From the NCBI GenBank assembly GCA_018894595.1, contig JAHIPN010000198.1, positions 1 through 7,744 on the forward strand: DNA of 7,744 nucleotides, given 5' to 3'. Both the position numbers and the translations under genes were made by a program. Source of the stretch: a bacterium. Lineage in GTDB: Bacteria; Atribacterota; JS1; SB-45; 34-128. Below the pieces are notes generated by a model. The model was not told where the DNA came from. It searched no databases and saw only the letters and a program-made list of their open reading frames with translations. Positions 1 through 7,744 of the stretch are shown here, one piece after another. The stretch's first letter is position 1. Every line of letters starts with the position of its first letter.

Positions 1-31
1 AGTCTCAAGATGGAAGATTGTACTGTGCGTT

Positions 32-457
32 ATGAATAGATACGGAACTATACTGGAAGGTGGGGTTGATTTCGACCTTACACATTTTGGGAAATTGAAA
101 ACGGTTAGAGATGTTTATGCTACAGGAAATCTTATTGTTACAGAGGAATTAAGAAAATTACAACCCACTCTATTCCCAAGTTGGCATGCTTTTACACCAG
201 ATGAATTGAAGATGTTGTTGGAAAGACATGGGTGCTATGTGGAAAAGTTATCGGCACCAGGTACCTTGGCACGTTCCGTAGATATTAAACTGCTAAAACA
301 GCTTTTGGTAGATAGAAAATCTTACGAAGACTATCTTAATTTTGAGGAAGAGTTCGACAAGAATACCTGTGTATTGTGGATTGGAGCAATAGGTGCAGGT
401 GGGTTACTCGTAACTGCTACTAAAGATTTAAATGACACTAACGCCAACGGTGTATAA
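32..457 (+). CDS. C-terminal part of class I SAM-dependent methyltransferase (5' end outside window, probably frameshifted)
   Basis: Seen: an open frame with no real start of its own. It continues upstream to the window edge, but its first ten codons there (VSRWKIVLCV) look unlike a methyltransferase. Another frame over the same bases (3-35) reads SQDGRLYCAL and then stops. DGRLYCA followed by MNRYG is what the strand-5 region of a class I methyltransferase should look like, so one base seems to be missing near 27-31. Further on come FTPDELKMLLERHG (residues 54-67 of this frame) and a final strand WIGAIGAGGLLVTATK (116-131). Both are typical of the C-terminal half of small-molecule or tRNA-type methyltransferases, and the methyltransferase at 5358-6158 has the same layout. 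The SAM-binding motif I lies outside the window. The stop codon falls inside the left box of the repeat at 452-533, as in a cassette whose gene runs into its recombination site. Substrate unknown. If the frameshift is real, this is a pseudogene. Confidence 0.72.
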   Translation: MNRYGTILEGGVDFDLTHFGKLKTVRDVYATGNLIVTEELRKLQPTLFPSWHAFTPDELKMLLERHGCYVEKLSAPGTLARSVDIKLLKQLLVDRKSYEDYLNFEEEFDKNTCVLWIGAIGAGGLLVTATKDLNDTNANGV

Positions 458-533
458 CAGTGTGTTTGCGGGTTGCTACGCTCCGCCCAATTTGCCCTTC
501 CAGCCGACTTCGCAAAGCCGCGGGACATTATGT
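452..533 (+). repeat. attC-like imperfect inverted repeat A (degenerate)
   Basis: This stretch is clearly richer in GC than the flanking genes. Its left end is GTATAAC (452-458, against attC R'' consensus RYYYAAC, one mismatch). Its right end is ATTATGT (527-533, against R' consensus GTTRRRY, degenerate). Inner arms TTTGCG (465-470) and CGCAAA (511-516) pair, and GCGG (468-471) can alternatively pair with CCGC (483-486). The centre carries CCCAATTTGCC (486-496), a variant of the CCAAATTGC motif in repeats C and D. The left end, TAACAG then GTTT and GGGTT, resembles repeat D. It follows the methyltransferase fragment directly and ends 36 bases before the TTG start of the next gene. The cassette-site reading is inference. 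Confidence 0.55.
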
Positions 534-555
534 ACAATGACATACATAAAAGAAG

Positions 556-560
556 AGGAG
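556..560 (+). promoter_or_regulatory. Ribosome-binding site AGGAG deciding the TTG start at 570
   Basis: AGGAG lies 9 bases before TTG 570. The upstream in-frame ATG codons at 432 and 537 have no Shine-Dalgarno sequence. Using them would add residues encoded by repeat A and unlike any S66 N-terminus, so TTG 570 is the preferred start. Confidence 0.75.
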
Positions 561-569
561 AGATGTATT

Positions 570-1607
570 TTGATAAAACCAAAGAAAATAAAACCAGGAT
601 CACGAATAGCAATTATTTCACCTTCAAATGGACTTCCATTTTTATTCTCTAATATTTATGAATTAGGGTTAAAAAATTTGAAAGAAATATTAGGTTTTGA
701 AATAGTTGAAATGCCAACTGCAAGGATGTCTCCGGATGAACTATATAAAAATCCAAAATTACGCGCAGATGATATAAATCAAGCTTTTGCAGATGATAGT
801 ATTGATGGAATTATAACTTCAATAGGAGGTTATGAATCTGTACGAATTCTAAAGTATTTAGATATTGATATAATCAAGAAGAATCCAAAGTTTATTATGG
901 GTTTTTCAGATGCTAGTACTTTTTTATCTTATCTAAATTATTTAGGAATGATAACTTTTTATGGCCCTTCAGTAATGGCTGGATTTGCACAGCTTAAACA
1001 TCTTCCTTTTCAGTGCATAGAACATATTAAAAGAATTTTATTTGCAAATCGTTTTCCTTATAATTATACTCCTTATGCAAAGTGGACTAATGGCTATAAA
1101 GATTGGAGCAATAAGGATACTCTGGGAGAGTGTACGGAATTTTTTAATAATGAAAATGGGTGGACTTTCTTACAAGGAAATGAAATTACACAAGGTCGTC
1201 TTTGGGGTGGCTGCATCGAAGTTTTAGAATTCATCAAGTCAACCAATTATTGGCCCGATAAAACTTTCTGGAATGATAAGATTTTGTTTTTTGAAACATC
1301 TGAAGAAAAGCCTTTACCAAGTCAAGTAGGATACATGCTAAGAAATTATGGTATTCAAGGAATACTCGAGAAGCTAAAGGGTGTTGTTTTTGGCAGAGCA
1401 AAAGATTATTCGGTTAAAGAAAAAGAGGAACTTAACAAAATTATCTTAAATGTAATAAGGGATGAGTTTAATGTGAGTGATATTCCTATAATTGTTGATA
1501 TGGACTTTGGTCATACTGATCCGAAGTTAATTTTACCTTTAGGGTGTATGGTTAGTCTTAATCCAACAACTAAAGATATTACGTTAATAGAGAATCCCTT
1601 TAACTAA
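570..1607 (+). CDS. S66 family peptidase / LD-carboxypeptidase, MccF-like
   Basis: A 345-residue protein from TTG 570, close to the usual length of MccF-type S66 enzymes (about 340). The family hydrolyses L,D- or nucleotidyl-peptide amide bonds. LdcA trims murein tetrapeptides in peptidoglycan recycling, and MccF cleaves microcin C and related aminoacyl-nucleotides to give immunity. Seen from the TTG start: N-terminal strand RIAIISPSNG (12-21); GIITSIGGYES (80-90); nucleophile elbow MGFSDAS with Ser113; GRLWGGCIEVL (209-219); FFETSEE with probable catalytic Glu242; and DFGHTDP with His315. Ser113/Glu242/His315 closely match the MccF triad spacing (Ser118/Glu243/His311 in E. coli MccF). No signal peptide is visible, so it is probably cytoplasmic, which fits an immunity or detoxification role better than cell-wall work. 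It sits between repeats A and B as a one-gene unit. The family call is firm; the MccF-like substrate is inference from architecture and company. Confidence 0.9.
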   Translation: MIKPKKIKPGSRIAIISPSNGLPFLFSNIYELGLKNLKEILGFEIVEMPTARMSPDELYKNPKLRADDINQAFADDSIDGIITSIGGYESVRILKYLDIDIIKKNPKFIMGFSDASTFLSYLNYLGMITFYGPSVMAGFAQLKHLPFQCIEHIKRILFANRFPYNYTPYAKWTNGYKDWSNKDTLGECTEFFNNENGWTFLQGNEITQGRLWGGCIEVLEFIKSTNYWPDKTFWNDKILFFETSEEKPLPSQVGYMLRNYGIQGILEKLKGVVFGRAKDYSVKEKEELNKIILNVIRDEFNVSDIPIIVDMDFGHTDPKLILPLGCMVSLNPTTKDITLIENPFN

Positions 1608-1626
1608 TAGTACGAAATAGTATTGC

Positions 1627-1710
1627 ACATAACAGCGGATATACGCTGCGGGCTTCGCCCTTTGGCACATTCGACTACGTCGAACGTCGTATAAGCTCGG
1701 AACGTTAGCT
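1627..1710 (+). repeat. attC-like imperfect inverted repeat B
   Basis: A GC-rich spacer between the S66 gene and the next methyltransferase. Its left box is ACATAAC (1627-1633, one mismatch to RYYYAAC) and its right box GTTAGCT (1704-1710, one mismatch to GTTRRRY). Arms TATACG (1640-1645) and CGTATA (1688-1693) pair perfectly. Two small hairpins lie inside: GGGC-TTC-GCCC (1650-1660) and TTCGAC-TAC-GTCGAA (1670-1684). The right end runs into CTGAAAT, comparable to GACGAAAT after the right box of repeat D. It lacks the CCAAATTGC core of repeats C and D, so it is a diverged member or a different site type. Confidence 0.55.
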
Positions 1711-1738
1711 GAAATCATCCTTAAAGGAGGAGAAATCT

Positions 1739-2485
1739 ATGAACTCTAATCTTGAATGGTGGCAGAAGTTTTTCAAGGGGACCTGGCAACATGTCCAACC
1801 ACTTGTCCATACTCCCGAACAAAACCAGAAAGAAGCAGATTTTGTTGAAGATGTTCTTAATGTTAAACCTTCCGCTGAGATACTTGACGTACCGTGCGGG
1901 GAAGGTCGTTTAACTATTGAATTGGCTTCTCGTGGATACAAAATGAGCGGGGTTGATATAAATGAAAGTTTCCTTAAAGAGGCAAAAGAAAAAGCTGACA
2001 AAAGAGGACTGGATATCATTTGGCATCATGGAGATATGCGCAAAATACCATGGGAAAATAAATTCAATGCTGCTTTCTGCATGTGGGGAAGTTTCGGCTA
2101 TCTTGATGATGAGGGAGATGCGGAATTCATTAAGGCAGTGAGCCGATCATTAAAGAGAAGCGGGGTTTTTCTTTTAGATATCCTGGTTGCTGAGACACTC
2201 TTTCCAAAATACCAATCAAAGGGGTGGAACAAGATAGGAGATACTATCGTATTAGAAGATAGAATTTGGGATCACATAACTGGACGGGTAGAGGTAGATT
2301 GGACATTTATCCGACAAAAAAAGCAGGCGACTTATCATAGCAGTATTAGAATTTATACTTATAAAGAAGTTATTAACTTATTGAGACAAAATGGATTTGA
2401 GCATTTCGTGGCGTTTGGGTCATTATCAAAAGATGCTTTTCAATTTGGAGCACAGAGGTTATTCATAACTGCAAGGAAAATTTAA
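1739..2485 (+). CDS. Class I SAM-dependent methyltransferase
   Basis: A 248-residue protein with an excellent ribosome-binding site: AAAGGAGG at 1723-1730, 8 bases before ATG 1739. Seen: a Rossmann-fold motif I, AEILDVPCGEGRLTIELA (46-63), followed by GYKMSGVDIN (66-75) with Asp73 expected to bind the SAM ribose hydroxyls. GDMRKIPW (98-105) forms the motif II/III region, then comes CMWGSFGYLDD (114-124), which resembles the substrate-pocket segment of small-molecule methyltransferases. The C-terminal half carries YTYKEVINLLRQNGF, a usual closing helix. This is a soluble enzyme with no membrane segment; the methyl acceptor cannot be told. It ends one base before the SDR start, so the two genes are almost certainly co-translated and share the unit bounded by repeats B and C. 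Its base composition is less AT-rich than the SDR it is joined to, which suggests different origins. Confidence 0.9.
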   Translation: MNSNLEWWQKFFKGTWQHVQPLVHTPEQNQKEADFVEDVLNVKPSAEILDVPCGEGRLTIELASRGYKMSGVDINESFLKEAKEKADKRGLDIIWHHGDMRKIPWENKFNAAFCMWGSFGYLDDEGDAEFIKAVSRSLKRSGVFLLDILVAETLFPKYQSKGWNKIGDTIVLEDRIWDHITGRVEVDWTFIRQKKQATYHSSIRIYTYKEVINLLRQNGFEHFVAFGSLSKDAFQFGAQRLFITARKI

Positions 2486-2486
2486 T

Positions 2487-3254
2487 ATGAATAAGACAGT
2501 ATTAATTACAGGAGTAAGTAGAAAAGTCGGAATTGGTGCAAGCATGGCTATTAGATTAGCATCTGTTGGATATAATATATTTACTACCTATTATAGGCCT
2601 TATGATCAAGATATGCCAAAATGGAAAAAAGATGATACTGATATACAAGTGATAGCAAGAGAGATTTCAAAATTTCCTGTTAAATTCAGTAGTTATGAAT
2701 GTGATCTTAGCGATATTGCACAGATTGCAAAGATTTTTGATACAGTTGAAAAAGAAATTGGACCTGTTTATGGACTAATAAATAATGCTTGTTTTTTTAT
2801 TGATACTAATATTGATTCATTAACAGCGGAGTTAATTGACAAACATTACTATATTAACCTACGAGCCCCTATGTTACTTTCTCAGGAATTTGTAAAAAGA
2901 TATCGCCAGAATAAAAATTATTCACAAGGTAGAATTATTACATTAACTTCTGGTTATGTAACAGAACCTAATCCTGGGAATTTAGCGTATAGTGCGACAA
3001 AAGCTGCAATGAATCGTTTTACTAACAGTCTTTCTTTAGAAGTGGCAGGATTGGGGATAACTGTAAATTCAGTAGATCCTGGTGCTACTGATACCGGTTG
3101 GATGTCGAGAGAATTAAAATCGGAAATTTTAAAAAATGCTCCTATGAAGCGACTTGGACAACCTATAGATGTAGCTAATCTAATAGAATTTCTGATATCA
3201 GAAAAAGCGCAGTGGATAACAGGTCAGATAATTCATTCTCGGGGAGGATTGTAA
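2487..3254 (+). CDS. Short-chain dehydrogenase/reductase (SDR), classical type
   Basis: A 255-residue protein starting one base after the upstream methyltransferase stop. AAGGA (2473-2477) lies 9 bases before the ATG, inside the end of that gene. Seen: nucleotide-binding motif TGVSRKVGIG (8-17), with a two-residue insertion relative to the usual TGxxxGIG; INNAC (98-102); Asn124; Ser155 in TLTSGYV; and YSATK with Tyr168 and Lys172. This is the complete Asn-Ser-Tyr-Lys tetrad of an active NAD(P)H-dependent oxidoreductase. DPGATDTGW (197-205) is the segment after the catalytic helix, and the protein ends in the usual SDR tail GQIIHSRGG. Substrate unknown; FabG-like annotations should not be taken as fatty-acid synthesis here. 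It is the same subfamily as the SDR at 4452-5252 (shared TGVSR..GIG, PGATDT and QWI.GQ) but clearly diverged and more AT-rich. Confidence 0.92.
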   Translation: MNKTVLITGVSRKVGIGASMAIRLASVGYNIFTTYYRPYDQDMPKWKKDDTDIQVIAREISKFPVKFSSYECDLSDIAQIAKIFDTVEKEIGPVYGLINNACFFIDTNIDSLTAELIDKHYYINLRAPMLLSQEFVKRYRQNKNYSQGRIITLTSGYVTEPNPGNLAYSATKAAMNRFTNSLSLEVAGLGITVNSVDPGATDTGWMSRELKSEILKNAPMKRLGQPIDVANLIEFLISEKAQWITGQIIHSRGGL

Positions 3255-3264
3255 AAAAATAGCG

Positions 3265-3411
3265 GCACTTCGTATAAAAGGATATTTGCGGTTACAGGGC
3301 TAAAGCCACTCCGTTCCAAATTGCCTATTATCACGGTTTCTGCTTTCGGATAAATTGCGCCAATTATGGTAACTCCGCAAATACCTGGAATATTAGACAA
3401 AATCGAAGTGC
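3265..3411 (+). repeat. Long attC-like inverted repeat C
   Basis: The SDR-adenylyltransferase spacer is mostly one long imperfect palindrome. Outer arms GCACTTCG (3265-3272) and CGAAGTGC (3404-3411) match over 8 bp. Inner arms TATTTGCGG (3283-3291) and CCGCAAATA (3375-3383) match over 9 bp. The next four bases, TTAC (3292-3295) and GTAA (3369-3372), pair across a 2-nt bulge. The apical part holds CCAAATTGCC (3316-3325), also found in repeat D and the 7079-7126 hairpin. ATTAGAC (3392-3398) sits in the right arm and is one base from repeat D's GTTAGAC. No clear left RYYYAAC box is seen; the corresponding place reads AATAGC. The outer arms lie outside the R' box, so the fold is longer than a standard attC. 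Read as RNA it could insulate the next gene from read-through or processing. Confidence 0.65.
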
Positions 3412-3413
3412 AA

Positions 3414-3418
3414 GGGAG
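3414..3418 (+). promoter_or_regulatory. Ribosome-binding site GGGAG deciding the GTG start at 3428
   Basis: GGGAG lies 9 bases before GTG 3428 and 2 bases after the outer right arm of repeat C, so folding of the repeat would leave it free. No in-frame ATG nearby has a competing site. Confidence 0.65.
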
Positions 3419-3427
3419 TGAAAAACT

Positions 3428-4279
3428 GTGAATCATAGCATATTAAATAAAATAGTAAACTGGGCTGAAAATGAATCTGAGATTCGAACTCTTATTCTTG
3501 AAGGATCGCGAGCATCGAATTCACAAACTGATGAACTGTCGGATTATGATTTAAATGTTTTTGTAGTTAATCCTGATAAGTATACTTCAGATAACAGTTG
3601 GATAAATAATTTTGATCAAGTATTGGTTTATCAGAAAGAAAAGTTTTTCTATAAGAATATAGAAATTCCTACTCGATTAGTTTTATATAAAAATAATCCC
3701 CGAGTTGATTTTTCCTTCTGGCCTATCAATGTATTGTATGAAATTATAGAAAATAGAATTCTACCAGAATCCTATAGAAACGGTTATGAAATACTTCTCG
3801 ATAAAGATAAGGTTACTGGTAATATTATATTGCCTAATTACGATGGTTTTATAATAACCCAACCAACAGAAGATGAATTATTAACAACAATATATAATTT
3901 CTGGTTTGAAGCATGCAGTGTTGCAAAGTATTTAAAAAGAGATAGATTATGGTTTGCGAAAATATTAGAAAATGGTCCTATAAAAGGGTTTATGCTTCAA
4001 ATTATATTATGGAATGAGTCGAGTAAATATGATTGGAACAACAACAAAATTCATTCGCAAGGCAAAAATCTTGAAACCCACGTAGATATAGATATTAAAG
4101 AATCCTTCAAGAAGTGCTTTTCAAGATACGATAAAAGCGATACATGGGATAGTTTATTTGGAATGATCGAGTTATTTAAAAGGCTTGCATATGAATTAAC
4201 AATGACAATGAATGTTAAATATCCAAATGATTCTATTTCTGTAATAGAAAAATATATAAGGCAGTTATATGAAAGATAA
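3428..4279 (+). CDS. Aminoglycoside 6-adenylyltransferase, ANT(6)/AadK-like
   Basis: A 283-residue protein from a GTG start, matching the usual ANT(6) length (B. subtilis AadK is about 284). The family transfers AMP from ATP to the 6-hydroxyl of streptomycin, inactivating it in the cytoplasm. Seen: the nucleotidyltransferase core TLILEGSRAS (21-30), then SDYDLNVFV (38-46), where Asp39 and Asp41 are the expected metal ligands. RVDFSFWPI (92-100) gives the third acidic position (Asp94). LLDKD (104-125 region), the FWFEACSVAKYLKR helix and a C-terminal helical domain ending near YPNDSISVIEKYIRQLYE also follow the ANT(6) pattern. No truncation or missing catalytic residue is seen. It lies alone between repeats C and D as a single-gene unit, is very AT-rich, and has no evident promoter. 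Chromosomal AadK-type enzymes can give weak or no streptomycin resistance, so the phenotype is uncertain. Confidence 0.9.
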   Translation: MNHSILNKIVNWAENESEIRTLILEGSRASNSQTDELSDYDLNVFVVNPDKYTSDNSWINNFDQVLVYQKEKFFYKNIEIPTRLVLYKNNPRVDFSFWPINVLYEIIENRILPESYRNGYEILLDKDKVTGNIILPNYDGFIITQPTEDELLTTIYNFWFEACSVAKYLKRDRLWFAKILENGPIKGFMLQIILWNESSKYDWNNNKIHSQGKNLETHVDIDIKESFKKCFSRYDKSDTWDSLFGMIELFKRLAYELTMTMNVKYPNDSISVIEKYIRQLYER

Positions 4280-4293
4280 TGTACTGTGACTTC

Positions 4294-4385
4294 ATCTAAC
4301 AGCAGGTTTAGGGTTCGCTCCTTCGTTGCTCATCCAAATTGCTCTACTCCGCTTCGCAATTTCTTAAACCGGCGGGACGTTAGAC
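4294..4385 (+). repeat. attC-like site D (best conserved)
   Basis: The left box ATCTAAC (4294-4300) matches attC R'' RYYYAAC perfectly, and the right box GTTAGAC (4379-4385) matches R' GTTRRRY perfectly. TCTAAC and GTTAGA pair over 6 bp. Inner boxes GGTTTA (4305-4310) and TAAACC (4365-4370) pair over 6 bp and occupy the L''/L' positions, with unpaired spacers of 4 and 8 nt. The centre carries AAATTGC (4336-4342) and GCAATTT (4356-4362), a 7-bp hairpin with 13-nt loop. The total of 92 bp lies within the known attC range. It follows the adenylyltransferase stop by 14 bases, in the orientation expected for a cassette's terminal site. No integrase is visible, so activity is unknown. Confidence 0.7.
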
Positions 4386-4451: not shown

Positions 4452-5252
4452 ATGACAAATAAATCAAATAAACCATTAGAAGGACGAATTGCATTAGTAA
4501 CTGGGGTTAGTCGTCGGAAGGGAATTGGTTTTGCAATTGCATCTCGTTTAGCCCAAGATGGGGCGGATCTCTTTATTCAATCTTATTCTCCTTATGATGA
4601 AGGTTTCCCCTGGGGCGCAGAACCTAATGGAATCGAATCGATATTAACTGAACTCAAGAATCATGGGCATAGAGTTGAGCATATCGAAGACAACTTTAAT
4701 GACCCTGAAGCACCAAGAAGAGTTGTTGAAAAAGCGTTTCAAACTTTTTCAAACATAGACATTCTAGTTGCTAATCATGCATATTGGTTGGAAGGTAAGT
4801 TGGAAGACCTTACAGCTGAAAACATTGATACACATATGAATGTTAATGTAAGGGCGACTCTTTTATTAATAAAGGAATGGAGTATACGCCATGGTGACAA
4901 CCGTCCAGGTGGGAGGGTTGTCATGATGACTTCAGGACAACACCTTTCTCCTATGTGCGATGAATTATCATATGTGGCTTCAAAAGGTGCGCTTCATCAG
5001 CTCACTCAAAGTATATCATACACTCTTGTCAAACGGGGTATAACGGTAAATACTGTTAATCCCGGAGCAACTGATACCGTTGATTATCAGAGATATTACC
5101 CCGAAATTTATCAAGCAGTGCTTGATAAAGAACCACAAGGCAGGTGGGGACAGCCAGAGGATGCTGCAAGATTAATAGCCTGGCTCGTTAGTGATGAAGC
5201 TCAATGGATATCAGGACAAGTAATTAATTCCGATGGCGGAGTTCATTTTTAA
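4452..5252 (+). CDS. Short-chain dehydrogenase/reductase (SDR), paralogue of the one at 2487-3254
   Basis: A 266-residue protein from ATG 4452. Seen: ALVTGVSRRKGIGFAIA (14-30), a glycine motif with the same two-residue insertion as the other SDR here; ILVANHAYW (104-112), with ANHA in place of the usual NNAG; Asn132; Ser161 in MMTSGQ; and YVASK with Tyr174 and Lys178. The catalytic tetrad is complete, so an active NAD(P)-dependent oxidoreductase is expected. NPGATDT (203-209) and a C-terminal QWISGQVINSDGG follow. It shares TGVSR..GIG, SPYD/RPYD, PGATDT, GQP.D.A and QWI.GQ with the SDR at 2487-3254. The two are therefore one subfamily, but far too diverged for a recent duplication. The acid after the second strand is absent in both (QSYSPYDE, TYYRPYDQ), which may favour NADPH. 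Composition is less AT-rich than the flanking genes. Substrate unknown. It follows site D and shares its unit with the methyltransferase downstream. Confidence 0.92.
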   Translation: MTNKSNKPLEGRIALVTGVSRRKGIGFAIASRLAQDGADLFIQSYSPYDEGFPWGAEPNGIESILTELKNHGHRVEHIEDNFNDPEAPRRVVEKAFQTFSNIDILVANHAYWLEGKLEDLTAENIDTHMNVNVRATLLLIKEWSIRHGDNRPGGRVVMMTSGQHLSPMCDELSYVASKGALHQLTQSISYTLVKRGITVNTVNPGATDTVDYQRYYPEIYQAVLDKEPQGRWGQPEDAARLIAWLVSDEAQWISGQVINSDGGVHF

Positions 5253-5357: not shown

Positions 5358-6158
5358 TTGGATATAGTTGAACAGTATTATGATAAATATTCAGAAGATG
5401 AATGGGAACGACTTAATCGTCATAAAATTGAATTTGAGATTACAAAAAGGTATATGCGAAATTATATCACTAAAAAAGCAAAGATTTTAGATGTTGGAGG
5501 GGGACCTGGTAGATATACATTATTTTTAGCAGAACAAAGTCATAAGGTAACTTTATTTGATATATCATCAAAAAATATTAAAATTGCAAAAGAAAGAATT
5601 ACGGAAAAGGATGTTAAAATAGAAAAATTTATACACGGTAATGTTTTGGATATAACCGAACATATATCAGAGCAATATGATGTTGTTTTATGTATGGGTC
5701 CTTTATATCATTTAACGGAGGAAAAGGATAGAATTAAAGCTATTCAAGGATGTCTTGAGGTACTTAAAGATAGCGGCTTATTATTTGTTACATTTATTTC
5801 TGCCTATGCTCCAATGATAGACATTATAAAAAAATATCCTGAAAAAATTATAGATAATAAGGAAAATCTATTAAATTATCTCAAAGATGGAAGAAATATT
5901 GTATCTGAAGATAATCCTGGATTTACAACAGCATATTTTATAAATCCAAATAAAATAGAAGAATTTATGAATCAATTTAATTTAGAAAAATTAGTACTAT
6001 CTGGAGTAGAAGGAATTCCCTCACAAAGCGAAGAAAAAATAAATTCTTTGTCTGAAGAGGCATTTCAGAAATGGCTTGATATTATTTATCAAACTTCAAC
6101 GGAACCTGTGACTTGGGCAAGTTGTGAACATTTATTGTATATTGGTAAAAAAACTTAA
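5358..6158 (+). CDS. Class I SAM-dependent methyltransferase
   Basis: A 266-residue protein from a TTG start. Seen: an N-terminal lid YYDKYSEDEWERLNRHKIEFE (7-27); motif I KILDVGGGPGRYTLFLAE (42-59); acidic Asp68 in VTLFDIS; the GNVLDI region around residue 95; and VVLCMGPLYHL (about 109-119), the post-I segment common in small-molecule and tRNA-modification methyltransferases. DSGLLFVTFIS forms strand 5, NPNKIEEFMNQFNLEKL the late helix, and CEHLLYIGKK the final strand with the HLL signature. All SAM-binding elements are intact. Its C-terminal layout matches the broken methyltransferase at 1-457, so both probably belong to one family. Very AT-rich, unlike the SDR before it. The substrate cannot be assigned. 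The 105-base spacer before it holds an inverted repeat but no attC-like boxes, so it may share its unit with the SDR. Confidence 0.9.
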   Translation: MDIVEQYYDKYSEDEWERLNRHKIEFEITKRYMRNYITKKAKILDVGGGPGRYTLFLAEQSHKVTLFDISSKNIKIAKERITEKDVKIEKFIHGNVLDITEHISEQYDVVLCMGPLYHLTEEKDRIKAIQGCLEVLKDSGLLFVTFISAYAPMIDIIKKYPEKIIDNKENLLNYLKDGRNIVSEDNPGFTTAYFINPNKIEEFMNQFNLEKLVLSGVEGIPSQSEEKINSLSEEAFQKWLDIIYQTSTEPVTWASCEHLLYIGKKT

Positions 6159-6235
6159 GGTAATATTGGTCACACTATCTGCAGTAAGGAAACTTATGAT
6201 TGATATTGGAAACAGTGCGTCAACCCTGCAGGACG

Positions 6236-6265
6236 ACAACGTTGCAAATACTTAAAACGTTATCT
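6236..6265 (+). repeat. Possible right half of an attC-like repeat
   Basis: GTTGCAAATAC (6241-6251), then ACGTTATCT (6257-6265), lines up with the right half of repeat C (CCGCAAATAC, then ATATTAGAC) at the same spacing. GTTATCT (6259-6265) has one mismatch to GTTRRRY. No paired left half is evident in 6159-6235, so this is a remnant or a chance likeness. The rest of the 139-base spacer shows nothing recognisable. Confidence 0.3.
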
Positions 6266-6283
6266 TAAATAAATTTTATTTCT

Positions 6284-6288
6284 AGGTG
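6284..6288 (+). promoter_or_regulatory. Ribosome-binding site AGGTG deciding the ATG start at 6298
   Basis: AGGTG lies 9 bases before ATG 6298. The in-frame GTG at 6286 is part of this sequence and has no Shine-Dalgarno of its own. MKKLVLHSDQ is a natural first strand for the S51 family. Confidence 0.6.
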
Positions 6289-6297
6289 CAATCGATT

Positions 6298-6948
6298 ATG
6301 AAAAAATTAGTATTACACAGCGACCAAGTTCATGACCACAAAGAAGTTGTTTTAGCTTTTATAGAACTGTTAGGTAAAAAAAGTCCGAGATTAGCTTATA
6401 TCCCCTCCCAATCAGACCTACAAAGAAGATATTTTAATGAAAAAGTGGAGTGGTATAAGCAGTTCGGAATTACTGATATGCTTTATTTTGATGTTGATAA
6501 AGAATATGACGAGAGAAAAATTGATGAGCTGCTTGCTTGTGATGCCATCTTTCTTTCAGGAGGCAACACCTATTACTTTCTCAATTCTCTTAAAAAACGT
6601 AAGTTTCTACCAAAATTAAGAGAGTATGTTCGGACAGGTGGTATTTTAATTGGAGTTAGTGCTGGGAGTATTATGATGTCTAAAACAATTAACATAACTA
6701 CTCTCCATAATGAAAACACCATTGGTTTGAAAGATTATAAAGCTTTAGGTTTAGTTGATTTTGAATTTTTTCCTCATCTTGACCATAACATGAAACAATA
6801 TTTAGAAGATTTAAAGAAATATTCTATTAAAAGCAATTCAATAATTTATGCCTGTAAGGATGGTGATGGAATAATTGTAAATGACGATGAAATCAAATTT
6901 TTTGGTGAGGTGCTGAAAATAAAAAACGGTGAAGTATCAAGGGTATAA
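6298..6948 (+). CDS. S51 family peptidase, dipeptidase E-like (PepE)
   Basis: A 216-residue protein, close to the usual S51 length (about 220-230). The family is a serine hydrolase with a class-I-glutamine-amidotransferase-like fold; E. coli PepE cleaves dipeptides with N-terminal aspartate. Seen from ATG 6298: RLAYIPSQSD (31-40); DAIFLSGGNTYYFLNSL (82-98), the SGGNT oxyanion-loop signature; GVSAGSIMM (119-127) with nucleophile Ser121 in GxSAG; and FFPHLDHNM (157-165) with catalytic His expected at 160 (E. coli PepE: Ser120, His157). The closing segment IIYACKDGDGIIVNDDEIKFFG is standard for the family. No signal peptide, so cytoplasmic. Specificity for Asp-X dipeptides is not assured: many Bacillota members have other or unknown substrates, including cyanophycin-type and immunity functions. 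It stands alone between a weak repeat half and the structured gap downstream. Confidence 0.88.
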   Translation: MKKLVLHSDQVHDHKEVVLAFIELLGKKSPRLAYIPSQSDLQRRYFNEKVEWYKQFGITDMLYFDVDKEYDERKIDELLACDAIFLSGGNTYYFLNSLKKRKFLPKLREYVRTGGILIGVSAGSIMMSKTINITTLHNENTIGLKDYKALGLVDFEFFPHLDHNMKQYLEDLKKYSIKSNSIIYACKDGDGIIVNDDEIKFFGEVLKIKNGEVSRV

Positions 6949-6951
6949 ATG

Positions 6952-7262
6952 CTGCGAGCCTGAAAGTGTCAAAAGAACCCCTTGACAATATGGCTATTGT
7001 TAAAGACAAAGTGGGACTTGGATAATGGTGTGCCGATGGTAGATATCAAGGGATGCGAGACGGCGGCTAACGACGGATGATAAGGAAGCCAAAGATTTTC
7101 CAAATTGCCTTTGGTAACTTCTTGTCTCTGGACGAAATTAGTAAATCATACCAATATCTGTAGTAAATTATAGTTGTAAAATCTTTTTAATGAAGAATGT
7201 CAAGAGAACTGTTCCTATTCAAATTTGTCGGAAATACCCAAAAGGTTATCTGAAATTGAAGG
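6952..7262 (+). other. Gene-free structured region; possible 5' remnant of a group II intron or unrecognised structured RNA
   Basis: No coding frame of substance is seen between the peptidase stop (6948) and ATG 7286, but the stretch is full of stems. TTGACAATA-TGGC-TATTGTTAA (6982-7003) is a 9-bp hairpin with one G-T wobble. TGTCAA (6967-6972) can instead pair with TTGACA (6982-6987). The 7079-7126 stem is listed separately. The beginning GCTGCGAGCC (about 6954-6963) resembles the group II intron 5' consensus GUGYG with an extra base. Blocks such as GGGATGCGAGACGGCGGCTAAC (split by short variants) and TAATGAAGAATGTCAAGAGAACT recall domain I of such introns in general style. No domain V and no reverse transcriptase are present, so an intron would be a 5' fragment. 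This is recognition by feel, without alignment. Confidence 0.35.
7079..7126 (+). repeat. Extended stem-loop with CCAAATTGCC loop
   Basis: CCAAAG (7089-7094) pairs with CTTTGG (7109-7114), GAAG (7085-7088) with CTTC (7118-7121), and GATAA (7079-7083) with TTGTC (7122-7126) through one wobble. The right strand has a 3-nt bulge and the left a 1-nt bulge. CCAAATTGCC (7100-7109) runs from the loop into the right strand and is identical to the core of repeat C. GACGAAAT follows at 7131-7138, as after the right box of site D. It may be a degenerate attC-like site or a domain I stem of the putative intron. Confidence 0.5.
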
Positions 7263-7285
7263 TAAAACAATAGAGAGGTAAAAAT

Positions 7286-7744
7286 ATGGATGAGTTATTT
7301 GAATCGGTTAAGAAAAGAGCGAAAGAGTTGGGAGTTAAAAAAATAGTAGTAGCATCATCCACAGGTGATAGTGCAAAGGGAGCTGTTAAAGAGTTGGGAA
7401 CTAAAGACTATGAGATAATAGTTGTGACCGATCGTGATGAGGTAGTTTGGGATGTTGGATCTATGTCCGAAAAAATGCAAAGGGAATATGAAATTAAAAC
7501 GGGAGCAAAGGAGTATCCCAGTGGCATAGACCATGATTCACCAGTACGTAAAGAGCTTAAGGATATGGGTGTCAACTGGATCATTCAAGCTACTGAGGTT
7601 TTCAGGGGAATCAATGTCCCTGGTGGTTTCAATGTAGCCCAGGTGATTGCCCAAACACTTTATCTGTTTGGGTCCGGAACAAAAGTTGCCATAGAGATTA
7701 CGCTGATTGCCTGTGATGCTGGGGCAATAAGGGCCGGTGAAGAT
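7286..7744 (+). CDS. Pyruvate kinase C-terminal-domain-like protein, 3'-truncated by the window
   Basis: An open frame of 153 codons from ATG 7286 to the window end with no stop. GAGAGG (7273-7278) lies 7 bases before the start. Seen: a first helix MDELFESVKKRAKELGV (1-17), strand KIVVASSTGDSAKGAVKEL (19-37), where ASSTGDSA resembles the phosphate-loop-like turn of the pyruvate kinase C-terminal (alpha/beta) domain, and strand YEIIVVTDRDE (42-52). A conserved-looking middle block covers FRGINVPGGFNVAQVIAQTL (106-125). The end, VAIEITLIACDAGAIRAGED (134-153), matches the EI..MA.DAG pattern of the family. Stand-alone proteins of this kind, without the catalytic barrel, occur in clostridia and archaea and have no settled function. 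Codon use is more balanced than in the cassette-like genes, so this may mark the edge of the accessory block and the return to core chromosome. Confidence 0.7.
   Translation, partial: MDELFESVKKRAKELGVKKIVVASSTGDSAKGAVKELGTKDYEIIVVTDRDEVVWDVGSMSEKMQREYEIKTGAKEYPSGIDHDSPVRKELKDMGVNWIIQATEVFRGINVPGGFNVAQVIAQTLYLFGSGTKVAIEITLIACDAGAIRAGED

What the first reader, a model, noticed from the sequence alone, without database searches (positions are those of the whole stretch)
452..4385. Cassette-like array with attC-like sites in a probable Bacillota genome, without visible integrase
Four spacers (452-533, 1627-1710, 3265-3411, 4294-4385) carry GC-rich imperfect inverted repeats in one orientation, each directly 3' of a gene. 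Right boxes are GTTAGAC, GTTAGCT, ATTAGAC and ATTATGT; left boxes are ATCTAAC, ACATAAC and GTATAAC, with none clear in the third. Unit lengths measured right box to right box (about 1.18, 1.69 and 0.99 kb) suit gene cassettes. The cargo is unrelated enzymes of resistance or detoxification type, and base composition changes from gene to gene. Integron cassettes are normally a proteobacterial trait, so a Gram-positive array mobilised by an unknown or distant recombinase would be new or little described.
Basis: partly seen in the sequence, partly recalled or inferred. Interest (0 to 1): 0.78.

Follow-up and report, generated by a model that had tools for sequence, protein, structure and literature searches.

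The report
Gene cassettes with an unusual integrase
This stretch of DNA is a row of swappable gene cassettes like those of bacterial integrons, and related genomes pair such rows with an enzyme that lacks the part thought to define integron enzymes.

Summary
Four folded sites (452-533, 1627-1710, 3272-3398, 4294-4385) lie on one strand, each 3' of a gene. A covariance model of related sites finds all four, including one not used in training. Over 51 cassettes, start and end boxes co-vary within a cassette but not across a site, as expected of circular cassettes recombining at the right box.

"Bacillota" is not supported: the closest DNA relative, G001 (Atribacterota by one marker), carries four window segments at 93-96% identity, three in another order.

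The window has no integrase. In related genomes a tyrosine recombinase without the integron-specific extra domain, often with an N-terminal HARP-like domain, has a conserved attI-like site just 3' in 16 of 19 loci, and attC sites in 9 of 19. No genome tested passes the IntI cut-off (0 of 147, 0 of 14). A Chryseobacterium plasmid shows the same arrangement.

Best reading: an integrase-less fragment of an integron-like system run by an "I2-less" integrase. Cassette nature is strongly supported; the enzyme's role rests on association and is untested at the bench.

The parts
2..457 (+). Cassette 0: 3' part of a methyltransferase-like gene, cut by the window start; its start box in the relative G001 is GTTATAC, exact partner of its end box GTATAAC here
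   Evidence: 96% identical over window 1-438 to L128; start box read there; no Pfam hit for the fragment, methyltransferase by eye from the longer copy
452..533 (+). attC-like site 1: left box GTATAAC 452-458, right box ATTATGT 527-533
   Evidence: 64.3 bits (training member)
570..1607 (+). Cassette 1 gene: S66 LD-carboxypeptidase / MccF-like
   Evidence: PF17676, PF02016; homologues named LD-carboxypeptidase, some microcin C7 resistance protein MccF
1627..1710 (+). attC-like site 2: left box ACATAAC (exact partner of the ATTATGT that starts its cassette), right box GTTAGCT 1704-1710
   Evidence: 51.8 bits (training member)
1739..2485 (+). Cassette 2, first gene: SAM methyltransferase
   Evidence: PF13649
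2487..3254 (+). Cassette 2, second gene: short-chain dehydrogenase; no site found between the two genes
   Evidence: PF13561
3272..3398 (+). attC-like site 3: degenerate left box GTATAAA, right box ATTAGAC 3392-3398
   Evidence: 25.9 bits, E 9e-5, not in training
3428..4279 (+). Cassette 3 gene: ANT(6)-like adenylyltransferase family, distant (AadS model 160 bits, cut-off 450)
   Evidence: 95% identical copy in L128
4294..4385 (+). attC-like site 4: left box ATCTAAC, right box GTTAGAC 4379-4385
   Evidence: 64.3 bits (training member)
4452..5252 (+). Downstream gene: short-chain dehydrogenase
5358..6158 (+). Downstream gene: SAM methyltransferase; relative (66% DNA over 429 columns) in L001
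6286..6948 (+). Downstream gene: S51 peptidase family; 94% identical copy in L128
7065..7173 (+). Doubtful decayed attC-like site
   Evidence: 13.3 bits, E 0.13
7245..7744 (+). Cassette with right-box-like start GTTATCT 7245-7251 and a gene with a PK_C-like domain (26.3 bits, below the cut-off 28); also in L001 and L002

Best explanation
The window is a piece of an integron-type cassette array from an uncultured bacterium, probably near Atribacterota. Each cassette is one gene (once two) plus a 3' folded site. Cassettes leave as circles and re-insert at the G/TT of a right box (inferred from box register and shared borders). The recombinase is most likely a tyrosine recombinase that lacks the IntI extra (I2) domain and, in these phyla, usually has an N-terminal HARP-like domain: HARP-Int. 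In relatives an attI-like site lies just 3' of its gene, which is transcribed towards the cassettes. HARP-Int would bind the folded single strand of attC, the HARP-like domain perhaps replacing I2 in reading DNA structure, and join it to attI or another attC. The window holds no integrase, so here the enzyme acts in trans, lies outside the fragment, or has been lost. Shown: sites, structure, register, shuffled order, association. Inferred: catalysis by HARP-Int, single-strand substrate, role of the HARP-like domain.
For: Sites: R1; in 95 sites all 11 stem pairs show two-sided changes, and pairing and covariation exceed 500 of 500 shuffles. Register: 51 cassettes, 2.82 of 4 variable box positions match within a cassette, 17 exact; shuffled 2.05 and 4.9; 0 of 20,000 shuffles reach; across one site 2.04 (n 89). 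Mobility: three window segments recur in G001 contig 221 in another order; the PK_C cassette is shared with L001 from 2 bases before its right box on, with unrelated DNA before it. Enzyme: attI-like R2 at E<=1e-4 just 3' of HARP-Int or its fragments in 16 of 19 loci (10 of the 16 trained the model, one more is nearly identical to a trained one); attC at E<=1e-3 in 9 of 19 loci, on the integrase's strand (one of them cut by the contig end, E 0.00099); in 6 of the 10 misses the contig ends within 1 kb downstream. Genomes with HARP-Int have attC in 12 of 13, without in 47 of 134, Fisher p 7e-5, relatedness not corrected. Thirteen loci of other tyrosine recombinases, from G001, G002 and nine relatives: 0 attC, 0 attI at E<=0.1. 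IntI over cut-off in 0 of 147 and 0 of 14 genomes; IntI1 itself scores 508 bits with that model. Chryseobacterium plasmid: homologous recombinase, weak attI-like hit (E 0.02), four cassettes whose start and end boxes agree 8/8, 8/8, 8/8 and 7/8.
Against: No recombination was observed. Four loci with downstream DNA (L054, L056, L057, L058) have no attC hit, and L054 and L056 no R2 either. Forty-seven of 147 genomes have attC but no HARP-Int at E<=1e-60: incomplete assemblies, or another enzyme. Several HARP-Int copies are broken, and the N-terminal domain was seen in 10 of the 17 hits only. R2 sites also occur alone (9 of 12 checked), unlike one attI per integron. The HARP match is weak and absent for the Chryseobacterium enzyme. 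Not all shared borders are clean. The S66 gene in G012 has no R1 site beside it.
Confidence: 0.68

Rival explanations
1. Ordinary CALIN: cassettes captured by a standard IntI (own, now lost, or foreign, acting in trans), with HARP-Int an unrelated neighbour.
For: CALINs are commoner and taxonomically wider than integrons with intI (passages of PMC9668308 and PMC8618304). The window has no integrase. Many genomes have attC but no HARP-Int.
Against: 0 of 147 and 0 of 14 genomes pass the IntI cut-off, though no genome with IntI was in that search as a positive control. The attI-like site just 3' of HARP-Int, ending in a cassette-start right box, ties the enzyme to the arrays. R1 does not hit the class 1 dfrA14 attC, whose sequence is in L168.
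Confidence: 0.2
2. The host's XerC/XerD pair recombines the folded sites, as for CTX phage.
For: All 14 genomes of the G001 family have other tyrosine recombinases (those I translated in G001 and G002 look Xer-like). The attC stem has few inserted bases; a stem without extra-helical bases is noted for the CTX site in PMC4792948 (passage).
Against: Thirteen loci of such recombinases have no attC or attI. Arrays are patchy (attC in at least 20 of 50 and 59 of 147 genomes), while Xer genes are near universal (general knowledge).
Confidence: 0.07
3. The repeats are static terminators or intergenic palindromes and the array does not move.
For: The window sites lie 3' of genes and have GC-rich, partly self-complementary sequence.
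Against: Box register, shuffled order, shared cassette border.
Confidence: 0.03

Closest known systems
Integrons with IntI (class 1, Vibrio superintegron)
   Same: R''/R' boxes, hairpin attC, cassette register, attI next to the integrase, tyrosine recombinase; the best PDB sequence hit is the integron integrase 2a3v (E 3e-45), just ahead of XerA 5hxy (1e-43)
   Different: No I2 domain (alignment skips chain residues 180-239; TIGR02249 positions about 180-230 skipped); N-terminal HARP-like domain in many; attC stem without inserted base in the 5' arm in 93 of 95 sites; attI with a covarying palindrome beside the right box and a weaker one upstream
CALIN elements
   Same: Clustered attC-like sites without IntI nearby, as in this window
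   Different: In 9 of 19 loci of relatives a recombinase lies by the sites, one that an extra-domain search would not count
Treponema 'reverse' integrons
   Same: Integrase transcribed towards attI and the cassettes (passages of PMC3607928, PMC4909258)
   Different: I did not compare the Treponema integrase itself
Archaeal integrons (PMC9668308)
   Same: Uncultured lineages, mostly CALINs
   Different: Their IntIs have the extra domain (passage)
NF040815 'site-specific tyrosine recombinase/integron integrase' (XerA)
   Same: The G012 enzyme scores 254 bits, the Chryseobacterium one 221.5, cut-off 220
   Different: Adds an N-terminal domain and the association with attC and attI

Membership tests
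CALIN (cluster of attC lacking IntI) | two or more attC sites in one orientation | tested here: met
   four sites on the + strand, by a model of my own
CALIN (cluster of attC lacking IntI) | no integron integrase nearby | tested here: inconclusive
   none in the 7744 bases; the window's genome is not held
CALIN (cluster of attC lacking IntI) | sites found by the IntegronFinder attC model | not testable with these tools
   model not available
Integron (IntI type) | attC with R''/R' boxes and conserved hairpin | tested here: met
Integron (IntI type) | cassette start box pairs with its own end box | tested here: met
   51 cassettes as a set; 17 exact; 4 cassettes; in the window one exact pair and one with 3 of 4
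Integron (IntI type) | attI beside the integrase gene | tested here: met
   in relatives only: 16 of 19 loci; none in the window
Integron (IntI type) | IntI with the extra (I2) domain | tested here: not met
   0 of 147 and 0 of 14 genomes over the TIGR02249 cut-off; the hits skip the region
Integron (IntI type) | extra-helical bases in the attC stem | tested here: inconclusive
   inserted base in the 5' arm in 2 of 95 sites, missing bases in 3 to 5; the sites were gathered with a bulge-free model
Integron (IntI type) | recombination at G/TT by the integrase | not testable with these tools
   only a shared cassette border near the right box was seen
HARP (PF07443) | N-terminal domain reaches the family cut-off | tested here: inconclusive
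   18.8 bits against 25 for the G003 piece and no hit for G012; 32 of 60 homologues at E<=0.1, best 7.7e-5, bits not shown
HARP / XPB / UvsW fold | same fold | tested here: inconclusive

The most novel reading that the evidence does not exclude
There is a second, widespread class of integrons whose integrase never had the I2 domain. It recognises nearly bulge-free attC hairpins, in Atribacterota and Stahlbacteria perhaps through a HARP-like structure-reading domain, and uses a palindromic attI of its own kind. Many 'CALINs' in uncultured phyla and in Bacteroidota would then be complete systems missed because searches demand I2. It may represent, or parallel, the state before I2 that the 'chicken-egg' question about integron origin asks for.
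Probability: 0.5. Interest if true: 0.92.

Novelty: new variant of a known kind. Interest (0 to 1): 0.78.

Why it matters
The extra domain is used to tell integron integrases from others (passages of PMC9024848 and PMC2426708). PMC4792948 calls the origin of I2 and attC a chicken-egg paradox (passage). A working cassette system without I2 would make that question testable and change counts of where integrons occur. The Chryseobacterium plasmid offers a case from a sequenced isolate.

Tried and rejected
Rfam: nothing for the window at E<=1 or for L001, L002, L024, L025 at gathering. Free folding of single sites: weak. Repeat finder: none of its five inverted pairs falls on a site. Box-plus-stem scan: strand-symmetric and unspecific, so not evidence. 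Plasmid BLAST of the window: no match. ANT-like protein in viral contigs: none. Bacillota host: not supported, but the window's host stays unproven because cassettes move and G001 was placed by one protein. Integrase remnant before the L001 attI-like site: weak (31 of 1000 shuffles as high), not claimed. PDB sequence search with the N-terminal profile: nothing; with one sequence: weak unrelated hits. No HARP chain is in the whole-model VIA list, which recombinases fill. A sequence-gap count of stem bulges was unreliable and replaced. No integrase tree was built. Ten paper searches: among the listed titles and abstract starts I saw none on a HARP-domain or I2-less integron integrase; only open-licence PMC text is held and lists were cut, so this is weak evidence. 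Papers were seen as found passages only (PMC9668308, PMC9024848, PMC8618304, PMC2426708, PMC3607928, PMC4909258, PMC4792948, PMC2727003, PMC7370490, PMC9892861); the last two gave nothing I used.
Full report
What was checked. The four spacers and boxes are as described, except that site 3 spans 3272-3398 with a degenerate left box. The genes are an S66 peptidase, a methyltransferase, a short-chain dehydrogenase and a distant ANT(6)-like adenylyltransferase. I aligned 15 sites chosen by eye from the window, L001, L002, L024 and L025; RNAalifold gave one 11-pair stem with two-sided changes in 9 of 11 pairs. The model R1 finds the four window sites on one strand; the one left out of training scores 25.9 bits, E 9e-5.

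Relatives. The window's genome is not held. The partial gene at the window end led to two loci (of 63 pattern matches): L001 (record 'Old_saline_planktonic', no taxon named) and L002 (Candidatus Stahlbacteria). Both carry R1 sites. The HslU of the L001 genome, G001, has among the 120 listed hits phylum-named matches only to Atribacteria, Atribacterota or Caldatribacteriota; that is one marker of one assembly. The window DNA matched 6 of 50 genomes of that phylum; the long matches are in G001 and G012, the rest are short. G001 contig 221 carries window 1-438 (96%), 6185-6943 (94%) and 3382-4229 (95%) in that order, not the window's. So cassettes are shuffled between the two. Borders are not all clean: the S51 match starts 74 bases before its right box, the ANT match 10 bases before, and no site was found after cassette 0 in G001. 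The PK_C cassette matches L001 from 2 bases before its right box, with unrelated DNA before it; it matches L002 from 17 bases before, where both have an attC-like 3' arm. In L002 the DNA before it is an R1 site, in L001 a weak R2 site (E 0.034).

Register test. Searches list 112 sites; I used 102. The ten dropped were cut or weak; the cut was not uniform: window site 3 (E 0.003) was kept, L134:3674 (E 0.0026) dropped. They give 60 consecutive pairs 250-2600 bases apart, 51 with both boxes readable. Within a cassette the boxes match at 2.82 of 4 variable positions, 17 of 51 exactly; shuffled 2.05 and 4.9; 0 of 20,000 shuffles reach either. The two boxes of one site, from different cassettes, match at 2.04 (n 89). 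This is what circular excision and insertion at the right box predicts. On 95 sites the stem is 89.4% paired against 61.4% shuffled, and sliding the partner by one to three columns lowers it to 26-54%.

Association. Nineteen loci: 17 HARP-Int hits (4 of 50 and 13 of 147 genomes), several broken, the N-terminal domain seen in 10, plus two fragments in G002. R1 at E<=1e-3: 9 of 19, on the integrase's strand; of the 10 misses 6 have under 1 kb of contig downstream, 4 (L054, L056, L057, L058) are true misses. In most the array lies downstream; in L024 it lies upstream and the contig ends 230 bases after the gene. Within about 100 bases of the integrase end lies a conserved element ending in a palindrome and, mostly, AAACRA|GTT (7 of 12 pairs with two-sided changes). 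Its model R2 hits 16 of 19 at E<=1e-4; 10 trained it. L048 is weak; L054 and L056 have none. R2 sites also occur without integrase: of 12 others, 3 have integrase remnants upstream, 9 none. Genome-wide, 13 of 50 (E<=0.01) and 51 of 147 (E<=1e-4) genomes have R2; up to 16 matches per genome, some of them both strands of one palindrome. Thirteen loci of other tyrosine recombinases, about 3 kb each, from G001, G002 and nine relatives, gave no R1 or R2 hit at E<=0.1; they are not from the genomes with intact HARP-Int. By genome: attC in 12 of 13 with HARP-Int against 47 of 134 without (p 7e-5), and 4 of 4 against 16 of 46 (p 0.02). Relatedness was not corrected for, and genome scans scored a capped number of candidates.

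Beyond these phyla. A Chryseobacterium plasmid has a recombinase 45% identical over residues 6-349, a weak R2 hit after it (E 0.02), one weak R1 hit (E 0.029), and four cassettes on the same strand with box matches 8/8, 8/8, 8/8 and 7/8, starts picked by eye. Five of 11 IMG/VR loci with shorter relatives have R1 hits at E<=1.2e-3 on the opposite strand upstream: a divergent layout; the five enzymes I translated lack the HARP-like part. So lack of I2 is the common feature; the HARP-like domain is not.

Known work, from passages: IntI is recognised by its extra domain (PMC9024848, PMC2426708); archaeal IntIs have it (PMC9668308); Treponema integrons share the co-directional layout (PMC3607928, PMC4909258); extra-helical bases guide strand choice (PMC2727003); the origin of I2 is called a paradox (PMC4792948); the one complete Firmicutes integron in that survey is in Limnochorda (PMC9024848). 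Here 93 of 95 stems have no inserted base in the 5' arm, which would fit an enzyme without I2, but the sites were collected with a bulge-free model.

Verdict. Cassette array: near certain. Host nearer Atribacterota than Bacillota: likely. For the window alone the strict label is an integrase-less cassette array; the novelty lies in the system it points to.

Noticed in passing
L185 8129, 10224, 12605: A 172-bp repeat sits three times directly in front of cassette starts on the Chryseobacterium plasmid: perhaps a small element that targets these sites.
   Followed up: partly
L001 4228-4310, L059 2755-2839, L130 and others: attI-like R2 sites without an integrase upstream: 9 of 12 checked. Fossil attI sites or a second class of array site.
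   Followed up: partly
L001 10634 and L002 near 7487: Two copies of the PK_C cassette agree up to the left box CGATAAC, then differ over the roughly 30 bases that L002 still holds.
   Followed up: no
L129 259-1316: The S66 gene of window cassette 1 (90% identical) occurs in G012 without an R1 site beside it.
   Followed up: partly
window 1739-3254: Cassette 2 holds two genes with no site found between them.
   Followed up: no
L176, L178, L180, L181, L182 (IMG/VR): Contigs of 80-362 kb with I2-less, HARP-less recombinases and attC-like sites on the opposite strand.
   Followed up: partly
L035, L037: Genomes G195 and G194 share an adenylosuccinate-synthase-like gene (by eye) next to HARP-Int and its attI-like site: possibly a sedentary locus.
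   Followed up: no
L128, reverse complement about 540-1830: An apparent transposase gene in the G001 array fragment, by eye only.
   Followed up: no
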